From Actinomycetota bacterium (GTDB lineage Bacteria > Actinomycetota > Acidimicrobiia > Acidimicrobiales > Acidimicrobiaceae), in assembly GCA_004298555.1 (NCBI GenBank), contig SCQM01000042.1, positions 1-34,485 on the forward strand: DNA of 34,485 nucleotides, written 5' to 3'. The position numbers and the translations under genes were made by a program. This document shows positions 5,144 through 18,426 of the stretch, piece by piece (the stretch's first letter is position 1; each line of letters opens with the position of its first letter). Under the pieces are notes generated by a model, which saw nothing but the letters and a program-made list of their open reading frames with translations, made no database searches and was not told where the DNA came from.

Positions 5144-6076
5144 TTAATTGGGTTTCTGAAACTCACCGTTTTGATAACTGTCGGCAACCAGCTTTAGAAA
5201 ACTCCTCGCCAGTTTATTCATGGCGGCACTTTTAGACCAGATCGCCCGTATTGACCGGTCGAGAGCAATCCCCTGTGTCTTGACAATCACCAGTCTGCCG
5301 CTTTCCACCTCTGCATTTGTAACCAGTCTGGAAAGTACGCCCGGAGCAACTCCGGAACTGACCATGGCTCTGATGGCAGTGTTTGATCCGAGTTCAACCA
5401 TCGGCATAGTCTTCAGACCCTGGGCCTCCAGGGCTTTGTCCAGAATTTCCCTTGTACCTGAACCGATCTCTCTCACGATCAGAGGAGTCGCAGCCAATTC
5501 CCTAGCGGTTACAATTTTTTTCCGGTTGGCCCAGGGATGATCCGGTGCCACAATGACAACCAGATCGTCGCTGCATACGACGCTATGACTGAATTCCGGA
5601 GCCACTCTCCAACCTTCCACAAAACCGATATCAGCCTTGTGGGCTCGAATTATTTCGATTATGTGCTCACTATTGCCGACCTGGAGGGATACGGAGATAT
5701 CCGCGCCAGCCGATCCGAGCTTGCTAAGCCAGAGTGGCACCAGATACTCCGAAACGGTCATGCTCGCTGCCAGCCTGAGACTGGTTTGTCCTTGCTGTCG
5801 CAGCGCTTGGGTACCCCTCATCAAGTCTGCAACACCTTCGAGAATCTGGTTGCTCCATTCCACGACGGCAATTCCTGCTGGAGTCAGTCGGGCGCGTCCT
5901 CTGGAGCGGTCTAAAAGAGTCAGCCCCAGCACCTTTTCCAACGACCTTAACCTCATGCTCGCCGCCGGCTGACTGACATCATGAACCATTGCAGCCTGGC
6001 GGATCGATCCGAATTCACCCACGCTCCGAAGCAAATCGAGCGACACCAAGTCGGGAACCGGTAATTGAATGGGCAT
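5144..6076 (-). CDS. LysR-family transcriptional regulator, divergent from the YeiH-type exporter
   Basis: A 310-aa protein with a typical LysR N-terminal helix-turn-helix: LLRSVGEFGSIRQAAMVHDV, then SQPAASMRLRSLEKVLG. A periplasmic-binding-like effector domain follows from about residue 95 (RLAASMTVSEYLVPLW, IGFVEGW, PLIVREIGSGTREI). The SGTRE motif places it with CysB/CbbR/YeiE-like regulators that control transport or assimilation genes. It is divergent from the exporter gene with 70 bp between the starts, an arrangement repeatedly seen for YeiE-YeiH pairs. TATAAG ends 8 nt before the ATG, so the transcript may be leaderless. A dyad just upstream is the likely binding site for both promoters. 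The effector is unknown; sulfite or sulfonate is a guess from family context. Confidence 0.88.
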   Translation of the reverse strand: MPIQLPVPDLVSLDLLRSVGEFGSIRQAAMVHDVSQPAASMRLRSLEKVLGLTLLDRSRGRARLTPAGIAVVEWSNQILEGVADLMRGTQALRQQGQTSLRLAASMTVSEYLVPLWLSKLGSAGADISVSLQVGNSEHIIEIIRAHKADIGFVEGWRVAPEFSHSVVCSDDLVVIVAPDHPWANRKKIVTARELAATPLIVREIGSGTREILDKALEAQGLKTMPMVELGSNTAIRAMVSSGVAPGVLSRLVTNAEVESGRLVIVKTQGIALDRSIRAIWSKSAAMNKLARSFLKLVADSYQNGEFQKPN

Positions 6077-6084
6077 AAGGCGAG

Positions 6085-6116
6085 CTTATAGGTTGCTCAT
6101 TAATTCGGGGTAATGA
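6085..6116. promoter_or_regulatory. LysR binding dyad and lysR promoter
   Basis: TCATTA (6097-6102), 8 nt, TAATGA (6111-6116) is a perfect inverted repeat in the 70-bp divergent gap. The lysR -10 box TATAAG reads on the minus strand at 6085-6090. The dyad would cover the lysR spacer and -35 region and lies about 31-50 bp upstream of the exporter ATG, the classical place for a LysR recognition site that represses its own gene and activates the divergent one. Confidence 0.6.
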
Positions 6117-6146
6117 ATAGGGACCTCCCACCCCAAAACTGTATCC

Positions 6147-7223
6147 ATGCCGAATCGATCCACCACGTCGAACCAAAACAAATCTTCGCTCGCCGACGGC
6201 GTGCCTGAAAATTCAAAGCGAGCCGGACTTCCTCAGATTCTTCCAGGCCTTGGAGTTGCAACAGGTCTGGCAGTAATCGCAACCGTGCTTGGCAAACTGG
6301 CCCCCGTCGTAGGTGCACCAGTTTTTGCAATATTGGCCGGAATCATGTTTGCAAGCATTCGAAGCCACTCACCCAAACTGCAGCCCGGACTTTCATTCTC
6401 GAGCAAGGCAGTCCTGCAGGGATCTATCGTTGTGCTAGGCACAGGACTTTCCTTCCGGCAGGTCTTATCAACAGGAGCAGCTTCCTTGCCGGTTCTTTTG
6501 GGCACTCTGAGCATTGCACTGATCGGGGCGTGGCTGGTCGGACGGGCATTGGGGATCTCAAAAGATCTCCGAACCCTGATAGGCGTGGGCACGGGGATCT
6601 GCGGCGCTTCCGCTATCGCGGCGACTGATGCGGTTATCGAAGCTCAAGAGACAGACGTCTCTTACGCAATTGCGACTATCTTTACCTTCAACATCTTGGC
6701 AGTCCTCACATTCCCATCCGTTGGACGCCTGATGTCGCTGACGCCGCACGCATTTGGCCTCTGGGCTGGCACAGCAATCAACGACATGTCCTCAGTGGTT
6801 GCGGCTGCATCGATTTTCTCCACGGGTGCGGGCTCTTATGCAGTAATAGTGAAGCTCACCAGAACGCTGATGATAATTCCAATCACCCTTGCAATCGCCA
6901 TCTGGCGCTCTAAGAAGTTGAGCGGTCCCTCCACCAGAACCAATCACTTCAAGCACGTTCGCCGCGTTTTCCCCGTTTTCATAGCATGGTTCCTGGCCGC
7001 CGTTTTTCTGAACACCTTCGGACTGGTTCCAAATGCTTGGCATTCGCGCCTGTCCAGCCTGGCCGAGTTCATGATTACCATTGCGCTGGGTTCCATCGGC
7101 CTCTCCACCCGACTGGACAAGATTAGGCGTGCGGGACCGAAACCCTTAGCGCTGGGAGCTATCCTCTGGCTGCTCGTTGCCGGTAGCAGCCTGCTTCTCC
7201 AGCTCCTGTCTGGAACAATATAA
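6147..7223 (+). CDS. YeiH/UPF0324 family putative exporter
   Basis: A 358-aa membrane protein with about ten hydrophobic helices, of the conserved family Cons_hypoth698 (PF03601), usually labelled putative sulfate exporter. Visible family blocks include SFSSKAVLQGSIVVLGTGLS, LIGVGTGICGASAIAATDAV (a conserved glycine-rich re-entrant stretch), FGLWAGTAINDMSSVVAAA and IALGSIGLSTRLDKIRRAG near the end. The first 28 residues are polar and likely cytoplasmic. There is no good ribosome-binding site before the ATG, so the start may be leaderless or slightly misplaced. The divergent LysR is probably its activator. The transported substrate is not proven for the family; sulfate or sulfite export is a hypothesis. 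Confidence 0.85.
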   Translation: MPNRSTTSNQNKSSLADGVPENSKRAGLPQILPGLGVATGLAVIATVLGKLAPVVGAPVFAILAGIMFASIRSHSPKLQPGLSFSSKAVLQGSIVVLGTGLSFRQVLSTGAASLPVLLGTLSIALIGAWLVGRALGISKDLRTLIGVGTGICGASAIAATDAVIEAQETDVSYAIATIFTFNILAVLTFPSVGRLMSLTPHAFGLWAGTAINDMSSVVAAASIFSTGAGSYAVIVKLTRTLMIIPITLAIAIWRSKKLSGPSTRTNHFKHVRRVFPVFIAWFLAAVFLNTFGLVPNAWHSRLSSLAEFMITIALGSIGLSTRLDKIRRAGPKPLALGAILWLLVAGSSLLLQLLSGTI

Positions 7224-14105: not shown

Positions 14106-14649
14106 GAATTTCCAAGTTAGGCGAAAAAGTCACCTAACCGACCTAAACGTGCGAATCAAATTCAAGGAATTCCTCTCCACAAGGACTGCAGCTTGTTTCT
14201 TATCTTCTGTGCTCAGGGGAATGCCCAGGAAGATAACCCTGCACTGTTTGGCAGCACGCATACCTGACACATTCAAATTGCTCCCGAGTTCCGACACCTA
14301 CTCCCACTACTTCCATGCCAAAGGTATGACCTAGGCAAACAATTTACGGCAGGACTCCTAGCAAACCATAGGTCTTAAGTCTTATAGGTGGTAGCAAAAG
14401 TGCTGTCAAACCACCGAGTCCGGTCCATATGGGACTAGGGAGACCCAGAGGCTGGAGAGCAGTAACAAAAAGATGCCTAGTAATGCTCAGGTTTTCTGAA
14501 GCGGGTCGACCGATCGTAAATAGCCAGCGACGACCACATGCCCTTACTAGGTAAACATTTCGACGACCCATGACTGAGCCTTCTCGGGGTACAACGGCAC
14601 AATTTTGTGCTGCTTTCCTGTATCGTCAAGGTGTGGACCACTAGCGGCA
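14106..14649. other. Gene-free stretch at the left border of the island
   Basis: No reading frame here has a recognisable protein or a ribosome-binding site; the open frames are short and overlap on both strands. It may hold the decayed 3' part of the transposase remnant that follows, but I cannot align it convincingly. Confidence 0.4.
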
Positions 14650-14859
14650 AGTGAACGGTGCGTTCGGGCAGCGGACGGAGTAGCACTCGATACTAAATTC
14701 AGCGCTCATGTCGAAATCGCTCGCGCCTCGCACGATGCCATGGCCGTTGCTTGTACCGTTCAAGGCTGAGACGACCAAAACCAGATGACCACCGAACACC
14801 CGGTACCAAAGACATGGGATAACCGCAACTTTCACGGTCGTGGTATTCGAAGTCCACAA
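14650..14859 (-). pseudogene. Degraded DDE transposase fragment (IS701-like)
   Basis: On the minus strand the frame reads VIPCLWYRVFGGHLVLVV, then GIVRGASDFDMSAEFSI, then ECYSVR. This matches the order of the C-terminal catalytic part of IS701/DDE_5-like transposases, where a WY..F....VRVVL strand is followed by ALVSTDLxLSAEEIIExYxxRW. The Asp of the StD block is preserved, but the frame ends soon after and further pieces (an FTVVDFEYHDRES-like stretch) lie in another frame upstream. It is a short, inactive relic. The assignment rests on pattern memory only. Confidence 0.4.
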
Positions 14860-15289
14860 CAGTGAAGAAGCGGAGCGTGACCTGCTTGGTGAGCACCCGG
14901 AGACACGGGCTCCACGGCAGCAACTGGACCATCCGCTTCAGCTATCGGTAGCTCTCCGAACTGGGTATTTACCGCCTCATGGTGAAGGTCCGTCACGTCC
15001 GGACTGTATCTGCCGGAAGTTAAATAGCGACCGGGACCCAGATAAGTGTCGGAGCTCATGCCCGAATCAATCGCGGTGATCGGAGGAGCCAACATCCACA
15101 GTGAGGCAATGCAGTGACGCCAAGTTAGCAAACCGATGGAACTGAGCCTGCACGTCTGACTGATGAGGGCCGAGCCAGCCGCATACTAACCAATTCACAT
15201 TTGCCGGCCTCTCCTAATTGTACGAGCACGAGGCCAAGGAGTCCCTGATTTCTCATCAGTGAACCGCGGAAAGTAGTATCATGTGACGC
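14860..15289. other. Gene-free stretch inside the island
   Basis: Only short overlapping frames are present. Fragments on the minus strand near 14860-14930 may continue the transposase relic in a shifted frame. No promoter, RNA gene or repeat is evident. Confidence 0.35.
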
Positions 15290-15838
15290 GTGACGGCTTA
15301 TTGCGATTTGCCGGAGACCGGGGCAACTGGGAAGCAATCGTTGCTCGCCATAGTCGCGGCGAGTGTGGTGGTCACTGACCTCGTCGCCAACCCTCGTTTC
15401 GGAACCCCAATCTACACCCGGAAGAGCCCCAGTTCCAGCTGCACCAATGACCTCTTCGGACTTTCCACGCTCTTTGTCGCGGCCCTCGAGGCGCAGCCAG
15501 CCGCCCAAGATGGATCGGGTGGGTCGTCGAAGTCCCTGAACCCGACGGCGCTATTGGTAGCGAGTCGCCATAACGAGCTACTCGGCTACTCGCCGGATCA
15601 CGACGAGGCGGCTGACGCCGTCATGATAAACCTACCTACCGATCTACGGAGACCTGGTCACCGTGAGTGAGTACCAGGACACCGGTCGTGTCGCCATCTG
15701 CGAGAAGGACGCGGTGAGACCGGCAAGCATCGACTCTTTGGGCTTTTCTCCGGCGAGCGGGGAAGCCACCTGCGCACCTATCATGGCGCGGACTGCCCGG
15801 AGATTTCATTCCTGCGACCTCGCCGGTCCACACTGAGG
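15290..15838 (+). pseudogene. Frameshifted reading frame of unknown function
   Basis: From a GTG at 15290 the frame shows strong G/C preference in third codon positions (LLAIVAASVVVTDLVANPRF, LSTLFVAALEAQPAAQDGSG), as in the two genes that follow. The preference stops near 15620. From about 15642 a different plus-strand frame shows it instead (YGDLVTVSEYQDTGRVAICE) and runs towards 15838. This looks like one former coding region broken by a frameshift, possibly with a second shift near 15740. No family is recognised. A sequencing error would give the same picture. Confidence 0.3.
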
Positions 15839-15845
15839 TTCCGGC

Positions 15846-16727
15846 ATGTTCTGCACCAACTGCGGATCGCCCCTCGAAGAAGCCCATGACTTCTGTACGG
15901 CCTGTGGCTCCAAAGTGGGTCAGCCCGCGCCGACCCCGGCGCCGCTGAGGTCCGTTCAAGTCACCTGCCACCTATGCAAACACAGTTTCGCGACGGACGG
16001 CAAGACGAAGCGGACAACATGTCCTGCGTGCGGAGCAACCGGCCGCTGGTTCCGCTGCACTGGCTGCCACAAGACGGTGGGGATCTGGAGTAACAGCGAT
16101 GAGGAGACATGGACCTTCACGTGCCCACTCTGCGGTGTGCGCCAGACCCAGTCCGCACCTGCTCCCGCTTCTATAAGAAAAAGAAAGGGCATTGGATCGG
16201 CCATCTTTACGCTGACCTTGGCGGCCATTACCGTGGGATTGTTCCTGTTCCACCAACAACTTGTTAGCTGGTTGTCCGAACTGGGCAGCACAACAGCTTC
16301 CTCCTCGGGGCCGGGATCATTGGGCAGATCGGACTCGAATGTGCCAAACTCGGCCGGGGGAAGCGGTGCAACTACCGGCCCGTACTGCCTCATCCAGCCG
16401 GATGGTGGAGCAGATGGGGTTTCGCTCTACCACCGGGTGAACACCAGAACCACGGCTCCCTGCTATTCCCACTGGAATCTCACCGTCGCTAACGGTGGTC
16501 TCATTAATTTCGGCCGCGCATGTGGCTTCTATGTCAACGATCAGGGACCTTCCGCAGTTCCCCTCAACATCTGGAACATCATCAAATGGGGTGAGACTCC
16601 GGTACCTGGGACCGGCCAGGCCGTGTACACGGCGTGGCTGCATGACGGCACGGTCATCAACCTAGCCTGTGTCGCGATCTCCGAGAATGCACCTCAAACA
16701 ACTCTGATAAGCAACGATTGGGGGTAG
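15846..16727 (+). CDS. Membrane protein with three N-terminal zinc ribbons, unknown function
   Basis: A 293-aa protein. Six CxxC knuckles form three consecutive zinc ribbons: C3/C6 with C17/C20 (MFCTNCG...FCTACG, the common short ribbon), C41/C44 with C59/C62, and C71/C74 with C93/C96. A basic stretch (RKRKG) leads into one transmembrane helix at about residues 116-134. A Ser/Gly-rich linker and an extracytoplasmic domain of about 120 residues follow, with four Cys and several Trp, which I do not recognise. The topology should be cytoplasmic ribbons and an external domain. The start ATG opens the ribbon motif directly. A similar gene follows after 6 bp, so the two are an operon. Base composition is GC-richer than in the flanking genes. 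Confidence 0.75.
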   Translation: MFCTNCGSPLEEAHDFCTACGSKVGQPAPTPAPLRSVQVTCHLCKHSFATDGKTKRTTCPACGATGRWFRCTGCHKTVGIWSNSDEETWTFTCPLCGVRQTQSAPAPASIRKRKGIGSAIFTLTLAAITVGLFLFHQQLVSWLSELGSTTASSSGPGSLGRSDSNVPNSAGGSGATTGPYCLIQPDGGADGVSLYHRVNTRTTAPCYSHWNLTVANGGLINFGRACGFYVNDQGPSAVPLNIWNIIKWGETPVPGTGQAVYTAWLHDGTVINLACVAISENAPQTTLISNDWG

Positions 16728-16733
16728 CAACTG

Positions 16734-17654
16734 GTGACTCAAACATTCTGTTCAAATTGCGGCAAGCCGGTAGCAGAGGGCATTGCCTTTTGTGGGCACT
16801 GCGGCGCGAAGCTGCAGCCCACGCAGGGAGCGACCAAACCCGCCGGTGCCCGGCCACGAAACCGGCCATGGAAAAGGGCGATCGGCATTGCGATCCCGCT
16901 CTTCGTCATCACTGTGACTGCCGGATTGCTCTTCGGATTCTTCGTCATTCCAGCAGTCACCCAGCAGCCGGCTGGCACTTCTGTCGGCGCCCGCGCCGCT
17001 CCCCCGATCGCGGGTGGATCTTCGTCCACCACGCAGCAGGCTGCACCTGCGGCCGTGGCTGGCTCCTGGCCGGCTGCCTGCCTCGCTCTCGATCTCACCA
17101 ATGCGCAGGAGTGGAACAAGGGCGCCGACGAGTGGGCCCAAGCCGCTTCGGAGGCGGCATCAGCGAGTGGCAAGGGCGTCGCTAATGCGCCCACCGCCGA
17201 GACGGCTTTCGGCACACTGGAGCAGATTGACGCCGCGGCGGCCAAGGCGGCGGCGACGACCGCTACCACGTCTTCGGGCGTGGCGGGGGCACTGGCAAAT
17301 TCCCCCATCTCAAATGCGACCCCGTACCGCGGGCCAACAGAGACACCGCTCCAAGCCGACCAGGTTTACCTGGGCGGCTGTGGGACAACTGTGGATGGCA
17401 GAGGCAGCTTCACGCCGCCGCCGGCCTGCGCGGCAGTCAGGCTCGGGAACGCTCACAACTGGGCAGGAGCCTCTACAGACTGGAAGTCTGCCCAGAACCA
17501 GGCCAGCTCCGACCACCTTGCGGCCGCCGAAGCGGAGTACGGTTCGCTGGCAGATGACGCCGATGTGCTCACAGAGCCTGGTGCGCCCCCCGACGCCCTC
17601 TCCAGGTACAGTAACGACGTGAAAGCGGCACAGCCGGATCTTACCGGCTGCTGA
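16734..17654 (+). CDS. Zinc-ribbon single-pass membrane protein with duplicated external domain
   Basis: A 306-aa protein starting at GTG 16734, 6 bp after the preceding gene. One zinc ribbon (C6/C9 and C20/C23: FCSNCGKPV...FCGHCGAKL) is followed by a basic linker, a transmembrane helix at about 50-72 and an Ala/Ser/Thr-rich external part. That part contains two related units, residues about 113-170 and 229-280, sharing a pattern of P-x-AC, a D/R-L-x-NA-x-x-W element, a second W, and A-x-x-x-F/Y-G-x-L. Four external cysteines (116, 216, 232, 306) could pair. The function is unknown; the shared architecture with the upstream gene suggests the two products work together at the membrane. Confidence 0.7.
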   Translation: MTQTFCSNCGKPVAEGIAFCGHCGAKLQPTQGATKPAGARPRNRPWKRAIGIAIPLFVITVTAGLLFGFFVIPAVTQQPAGTSVGARAAPPIAGGSSSTTQQAAPAAVAGSWPAACLALDLTNAQEWNKGADEWAQAASEAASASGKGVANAPTAETAFGTLEQIDAAAAKAAATTATTSSGVAGALANSPISNATPYRGPTETPLQADQVYLGGCGTTVDGRGSFTPPPACAAVRLGNAHNWAGASTDWKSAQNQASSDHLAAAEAEYGSLADDADVLTEPGAPPDALSRYSNDVKAAQPDLTGC

Positions 17655-17723
17655 TACTCAGAGCATGACGGACCGCATAGTTTCGCCCAGATAAGGAGAA
17701 CCGTTGGATCGGTGAGATGATCG

Positions 17724-17742
17724 GCACATAGGCTTTATGTGC
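17724..17742 (+). terminator. Hairpin downstream of the zinc-ribbon operon
   Basis: GCACATA-GGCTT-TATGTGC is a perfect 7-bp stem with a 5-nt loop, about 70 bp after the last zinc-ribbon stop codon. ATAAAG follows rather than a T-run, so a terminator role is only plausible. Confidence 0.35.
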
Positions 17743-17820
17743 ATAAAGTCGTGAGGCTTTAACTCGATTTTCTCACCTACCTCATCACCTACGCAGCGAT
17801 GTTCTACAGGTTAAGCGGAG

Positions 17821-17837
17821 CACGGTGATTTACCGTG
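17821..17837. repeat. Perfect inverted repeat in the gap
   Basis: CACGGT-GATTT-ACCGTG: a 6-bp stem with a 5-nt loop, about 80 bp after the previous hairpin. It could be a terminator hairpin, an operator or a remnant of an element end; no gene starts nearby. Confidence 0.3.
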
Positions 17838-18426
17838 GGGTCTTCATGGCGAAATTGCGCGGTGATGTTGCCGCAGCGGAACCTAGTAAGCATCTCGAAA
17901 ACCAATAGATGGCGCATGCGTGGAACTACTTAGGGCTTGAAGGGTTTCTTCTTTCGCAATTAGCGGCGTTCCTTGCACCCTCGAAACTTCTGAAGACTGT
18001 TTTGTTTCTGAAAGGACAGGTTGGAATGACAATAACATCATTCGTAGAACGCAATTCAGCCATATCCGATCCTCAGGGTTTCAAACCCCGTCCTTCGCGG
18101 CGGACCTAGACTGCACCAACGGCAAACTTACCGCCTGGTTTGGAGTGACGTTAATATCACAATCAGATGCCAAGCCAACCTCACCAGTATTTGCCGGAGG
18201 CTTCATGCAAGCAGAGAAATGGAAAGGATTCCTTTTGTCACTGAAGAGATGTCCGCTCAGCTTGCATTCTCGGGCTCGCACATCGGATTCTCTGAAAAAG
18301 ATATCCCAAATCATAAGCCTAGGGTCCCAAGCTCGTTTTTCAAGGAGGCTGGATTACAGGCACGCATCATTGATAAAAGTCCGTGAATCAGCGAAAGTTG
18401 ATTCTTACCCTTAGTAATGTATCAAA

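What the first reader, a model, noticed from the sequence alone, without database searches (positions are those of the whole stretch)
15846..17654. Two-gene membrane zinc-ribbon system: three ribbons in one partner, duplicated external domain in the other
Both proteins have cytoplasmic zinc ribbons, one membrane helix and a distinct external domain, and their genes are 6 bp apart. The first has three consecutive ribbons (six CxxC). The second has a roughly 55-residue external unit repeated twice (113-170 and 229-280) with conserved Trp and Cys. I know no described system with this pairing; it could sense the envelope and relay to cytoplasmic partners through the ribbons.
Basis: partly seen in the sequence, partly recalled or inferred. 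Interest (0 to 1): 0.65.

Follow-up and report, generated by a model that had tools for sequence, protein, structure and literature searches.

The report
Orphan pair of zinc-ribbon membrane proteins
Two adjacent genes in an uncultured bacterium encode small membrane proteins with zinc-binding knuckles predicted inside the cell and undescribed cysteine-containing domains outside; the pair is real but very rare, sits where relatives keep another gene, and is broken in the only relative found to carry it, so it looks like a dispensable accessory module and not a core signalling system.

Summary
P1 (15846-16727, 293 aa) and P2 (16734-17654, 306 aa) are two coding genes 6 bp apart. P1 has three CxxC...CxxC ribbons, one helix and a 117-residue external domain. 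P2 has one ribbon, one helix and a duplicated external domain. The repeat beats 2000 shuffles, but its units probably run Cys to Cys (113-216, 229-306), longer than reported. The external domains have no credible match in Pfam, NCBIfam, PHROGs, PADLOC or PDB sequences, nor in about 400 genomes of the order (P1 also about 400 of the phylum). Of eight congeneric genomes only G007 has P1; there it is frameshifted and stop-bearing, in different surroundings, behind a truncated P2 homologue and before a ribbon stub. dN/dS of about 0.26 shows P1 evolved as a protein. In the window genome a segment of about 3.65 kb (14345-17991) with the pair stands in place of most of a PAS-GAF-GGDEF-EAL gene that two congeners keep. 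The ribbon-helix-external-domain plan is known (S. aureus TcaA), but the TcaA model is not met. Best reading: a lineage-restricted, dispensable envelope module of two bitopic proteins that probably act together. Sensing and relay are untested.

The parts
15846..16727 (+). P1 gene: three zinc ribbons, one helix, external domain (293 aa)
   Evidence: period-3 signal 6.1; dN 0.41, dS 1.6 against the G007 copy
15849..15917 (+). P1 ribbon 1 (residues 2-24)
   Evidence: PF13240, E 1.5e-5
15966..16031 (+). P1 ribbon 2 (Cys 41/44/59/62)
   Evidence: CxxC spacing; all four Cys kept in G007
16056..16133 (+). P1 ribbon 3 (Cys 71/74/93/96)
   Evidence: CxxC spacing; all four Cys kept in G007, across a frame change
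16191..16256 (+). P1 membrane helix (about residues 116-137), preceded by RKRK
   Evidence: hydropathy windows; helix 117-146 in the model
16374..16724 (+). P1 external domain (residues 177-293; Cys 181, 206, 226, 275)
   Evidence: no Pfam match; all four Cys kept in G007
16734..17654 (+). P2 gene: one zinc ribbon, one helix, duplicated external domain (306 aa, GTG start)
   Evidence: period-3 signal 14.0
16746..16814 (+). P2 ribbon (residues 5-27)
   Evidence: PF13240, E 3.9e-7
16875..16964 (+). P2 membrane helix (about residues 48-77), preceded by RPRNRPWKR
   Evidence: hydropathy windows; helix 50-74 in the model
17070..17381 (+). P2 external unit 1 (residues 113-216, C116 to C216)
   Evidence: repeat score 70 against shuffle maximum 63
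17418..17651 (+). P2 external unit 2 (residues 229-306, C232 to C306)
   Evidence: same as unit 1
14345..17991 (.). Segment that stands in place of most of a PAS-GAF-GGDEF-EAL gene and includes the pair
   Evidence: homology to the G007 locus ends at 14344 and resumes at 17992
14221..14355 (-). Remnant of the EAL-domain end of the lost gene (45 codons, one TAA)
   Evidence: E 6e-8, 56% identity

Best explanation
The pair is a lineage-restricted, probably laterally acquired accessory envelope module. Both products are bitopic membrane proteins: cytosolic zinc ribbons (three in P1, one in P2) sit before a single helix, and Cys-containing external domains lie outside the membrane. Most likely the two proteins act together: the external domains bind an envelope or extracellular ligand and the ribbons dock a cytoplasmic protein, the same layout as TcaA. 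Shown: the genes, coding status, motif architecture, past constraint on P1, presence of both in a second genome in decayed form, and replacement of a GGDEF-EAL gene at this site. Inferred: topology, disulfides, zinc binding, lateral origin, joint action, ligand and partner binding.
For: Six CxxC in P1 and two in P2, one helix each, basic residues before the helix. Two genes 6 bp apart with start-site signals. P1, a P2 homologue (41% over 79 residues through ribbon, linker and helix, E 6e-13) and a ribbon stub lie together in G007. dN/dS about 0.26 for P1 over 274 codons, all external Cys kept. P2 repeat conserved at protein level. Narrow distribution, higher GC and poorer codon fit than neighbours and the replacement junctions fit accessory status. 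TcaA gives a precedent for the layout (PMC10328498).
Against: No ligand, partner or complex is shown. No intact second copy of the pair was found, so constancy of the pairing rests on one decayed locus with a different gene order. Zinc binding was not measured. The external folds could not be modelled with confidence.
Confidence: 0.45

Rival explanations
1. Surface decoration without signalling: the external domains serve adhesion, competition or wall binding, the ribbons only stabilise or oligomerise the cytoplasmic ends, and the genes turn over as accessory cargo.
For: Restricted distribution and decay in G007; replacement of an unrelated gene; no signalling gene adjacent.
Against: Three ribbons with all 12 Cys kept in G007 are more than an anchor needs, and the constraint on P1 includes the ribbons.
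Confidence: 0.3
2. A divergent member of the TcaA family of envelope-stress proteins.
For: Same order of parts: zinc ribbon, one helix, external bulk (PMC10328498). The TcaA model gives a weak match to P2 residues 5-61.
Against: The TcaA model scores 10.9 bits against a cut-off of 550, E 0.14, on ribbon and helix only. No Pfam domain of any kind is found in the external parts.
Confidence: 0.08
3. A transmembrane zinc-binding anti-sigma factor pair, with the ribbons holding a sigma factor until an external signal arrives.
For: Same topology: zinc-binding N-terminus inside, one helix, external domain (general knowledge of anti-sigma factors).
Against: The motifs are four-Cys ribbons; no anti-sigma model is matched and no ORF near the pair was recognised as a sigma factor (by inspection only).
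Confidence: 0.05
4. A relic: both genes are no longer used and are early on the way to decay, as in G007.
For: Decay in G007; 1.5 kb without coding signal just upstream within the same segment; sigma-70-like sites no more frequent than in shuffles.
Against: Both frames are fully open with clear period-3 signal and start sites. The chance of 293 and 306 open codons at these compositions is about 6e-5 and 7e-4.
Confidence: 0.07

Closest known systems
TcaA of Staphylococcus aureus (PMC10328498; NCBIfam NF053815)
   Same: Intracellular zinc finger, one membrane span, most of the protein outside; affects wall teichoic acids and sensitivity to wall-active agents
   Different: No match of the external domains; TcaA model 10.9 bits against a cut-off of 550. 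Here two adjacent genes, three ribbons in one, tandem Cys-bounded units in the other
Zinc ribbon proteins of PF13240 in the same order (ribbon-FHA, ribbon-cyclase and others)
   Same: Same N-terminal ribbon motif
   Different: Most of the sampled proteins have no membrane helix; two have ribbon, helix and a low-complexity Thr-rich tail (L106, L107). None has these external domains
Ribbon-helix-discoidin-like protein beside phage-tail-like genes in G039 (L017 2185-4008)
   Same: CxxC pairs, one helix and an external C-terminal domain, in the same family of organisms
   Different: Different external domain and gene context; its match to P1 is generic (28% over 74 residues, E 5e-4). Domain naming is by eye

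Membership tests
Zinc ribbon (PF13240) | Score above the curated cut-off of 25 bits | tested here: met
   P2 30.1 bits; P1 25 bits, at the cut-off
Zinc ribbon (PF13240) | Binds zinc | not testable with these tools
   Needs metal analysis of purified protein
TcaA (NF053815) | Score above the equivalog cut-off of 550 bits | tested here: not met
   P2 10.9 bits, residues 5-61 only; P1 not listed
TcaA (NF053815) | Order of parts: cytoplasmic zinc finger, single span, extracellular bulk | tested here: met
   Motifs and hydropathy, basic residues before the helix; sidedness is inferred
TcaA (NF053815) | External domains of the TcaA type | tested here: not met
   No Pfam match in the external parts of either protein
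Transmembrane zinc-binding anti-sigma factor | Anti-sigma zinc-finger model at the N-terminus | tested here: not met
   Only ribbon families listed
Known anti-phage defence proteins | Match to a PADLOC model | tested here: not met
   No match for either protein at E up to 1
Two-protein transmembrane sensor | External ligand binding changes a cytoplasmic partner through the ribbons | not testable with these tools
   Needs binding, interaction and mutant experiments

The most novel reading that the evidence does not exclude
P1 and P2 form a heteromeric transmembrane sensor: two undescribed disulfide-stabilised external domains read an envelope signal and a four-ribbon cytoplasmic array relays it, at a site where congeners keep a PAS-GAF-GGDEF-EAL signalling protein.
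Probability: 0.15. Interest if true: 0.55.

Novelty: new variant of a known kind. Interest (0 to 1): 0.3.

Why it matters
It adds two undescribed external domain types, one of them a tandem repeat, to the little-studied class of ribbon-helix-external-domain proteins, and gives a two-gene version of that plan. It also documents a site where such a module stands in place of a cyclic-di-GMP enzyme within one genus. Because the pair is rare and decayed in its only known relative, it says more about fast turnover of envelope accessory genes than about a general signalling system.

Tried and rejected
P1 hits in G024 are Cys-rich ORFs beside what look like IS21-type genes; judged chance similarity. 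The P1-domain hit in G002 is out of frame in a NADH dehydrogenase operon, and the one in G617 lies across stops ahead of and into another gene. P2-repeat hits across the order have E 0.001-0.01, the level at which the inspected P1-domain hits proved spurious; they were not inspected one by one. A PDB match of the P2 repeat profile (spike S2' construct, E 4e-4, 45 residues) was set aside as compositional (Ala-rich helix); this was not tested further. Genome-contig hits of P2 cover ribbon, or ribbon and helix, only. Fold searches were not run because confidence in the external domains was low (blocks of pLDDT 24-51). Plasmid, phage and viral-contig searches gave nothing. Four ORFs in the 1.5 kb upstream have no Pfam match, and no remnant of a P2-like gene was found there. 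Literature searches for the general architecture returned no paper. No direct or inverted repeats marking an insertion were found at the junctions.

Full report
Observation. P1 carries six CxxC motifs in three ribbons, one helix near 116-137 and an external part of 117 residues with four Cys. P2 carries one ribbon, one helix near 48-77 and an external part with four Cys. Pfam recognises only ribbons in the full proteins. The external parts alone have no meaningful match: nothing for P1 and one chance hit at E 2.2 for P2.

Repeat in P2. Residues 113-162 and 229-272 align with score 70; 2000 shuffles gave a mean of 34.6 and a maximum of 63. No corresponding DNA repeat is reported, and 7 of 15 identical residues use different codons, so this is a duplication conserved as protein. 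The second halves are only weakly alike.

Are they genes? Period-3 power is 6.1 (P1) and 14.0 (P2) against shuffle maxima of 3.6 and 3.5. The annotated frame has the best codon score of its strand, though for P1 one frame of the opposite strand scores the same. Purine-rich sites precede both starts. The 1.5 kb directly upstream, inside the same replacement segment, shows no coding signal (0.9). Codon fit of both genes is lower than that of the two native genes compared (which were in the training set), and their GC is higher (59% and 66% against 51-55% for the neighbours). This suggests foreign or fast-evolving origin (inference).

Relatives. The window genome has no second copy. Of 98 genomes weighted to genus and family, only G007 holds relatives of both. 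About 400 genomes of the order and, for the P1 domain, about 400 of the phylum gave no credible external-domain match; the two P1-domain hits were inspected and rejected, the weak P2-repeat hits were judged by E-value only. A species-wide contig collection (sensitive to close relatives only), viral contigs, plasmids and phages gave no external-domain match.

The G007 locus (L013). P1 there begins at 6260 and keeps all 12 ribbon Cys and all four external Cys, but it has an in-frame TGA and changes frame at least twice. Assembly error is possible in a 69%-complete MAG, but the truncated neighbours argue for true decay. Over 274 codons dN is 0.41 and dS 1.6 (dS is near saturation), so it evolved as a protein. 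Upstream, 5902-6360 encodes a protein whose first 80 residues match P2 at 41% through ribbon, linker and helix (E 6e-13), without a P2-like external part. Downstream of P1 a stub FCSRCGQP begins where P2 begins in the window. The flanking genes differ from those in the window. An ancestral array of more than two such genes is possible (inference).

The site. In G007 and G001 the methyltransferase and 3-hydroxyacyl-CoA dehydrogenase-like genes flank a PAS-GAF-GGDEF-EAL gene. In G003 they lie about 440 bp apart. In G008 transposase-like ORFs lie next to the dehydrogenase gene. In the window, homology to the G007 locus runs to 14344 and resumes at 17992. The EAL end survives as 45 codons with a stop, and no full-length ortholog was found elsewhere in the 92%-complete genome. 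So a segment of about 3.65 kb that includes the pair stands in place of that gene. How it arrived is not shown; no repeats mark the junctions.

Function. The topology follows from basic clusters before each helix. The layout matches TcaA, where the zinc finger is predicted inside and the bulk outside, and which affects wall teichoic acids and sensitivity to wall-active agents (PMC10328498). Membership is not met: the TcaA model scores 10.9 bits against a cut-off of 550. My reading is an accessory envelope module whose two proteins act together and whose ribbons contact cytoplasmic partners. Only architecture, coding status, past constraint and genomic history are shown. AlphaFold without homologues gave low confidence outside ribbons and helices: P1 external mainly strands, P2 external mainly helices. 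No fold claim is made.

Limits. The organism was not identified; the gene content suggests an actinobacterium (inference). Several congeneric genomes are incomplete, so absence is approximate.

Verdict. Real and undescribed in its external domains, ordinary in its overall plan, rare and dispensable. New variant of a known kind, interest 0.3.

Noticed in passing
window 14221-14355 (-); L075 1755-3986 (-); L076 1376-3619 (-): A PAS-GAF-GGDEF-EAL gene kept by two congeners between the methyltransferase and dehydrogenase genes survives in the window genome only as a 45-codon remnant.
   Followed up: yes
L078 55-1461 (-) and 1513-1959 (+), G008: TnpB-like and IS200-type transposase-like ORFs lie next to the dehydrogenase gene at the same site, so the site may be prone to insertion. 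Naming is by eye.
   Followed up: no
L013 3962-4089 and 12496-12623, G007: A 128-base stretch occurs twice at 83% identity, at the start of two unrelated-looking ORFs 8.5 kb apart on either side of the decayed pair; it was not found in the window.
   Followed up: partly
L017 2185-4008 (-), G039: A 607-aa protein with two CxxC pairs, one helix and a discoidin-like C-terminus lies directly beside genes that look like phage-tail or contractile-injection baseplate parts.
   Followed up: no
window 14356-15845: About 1.5 kb without coding signal or Pfam match inside the segment that carries the pair.
   Followed up: partly
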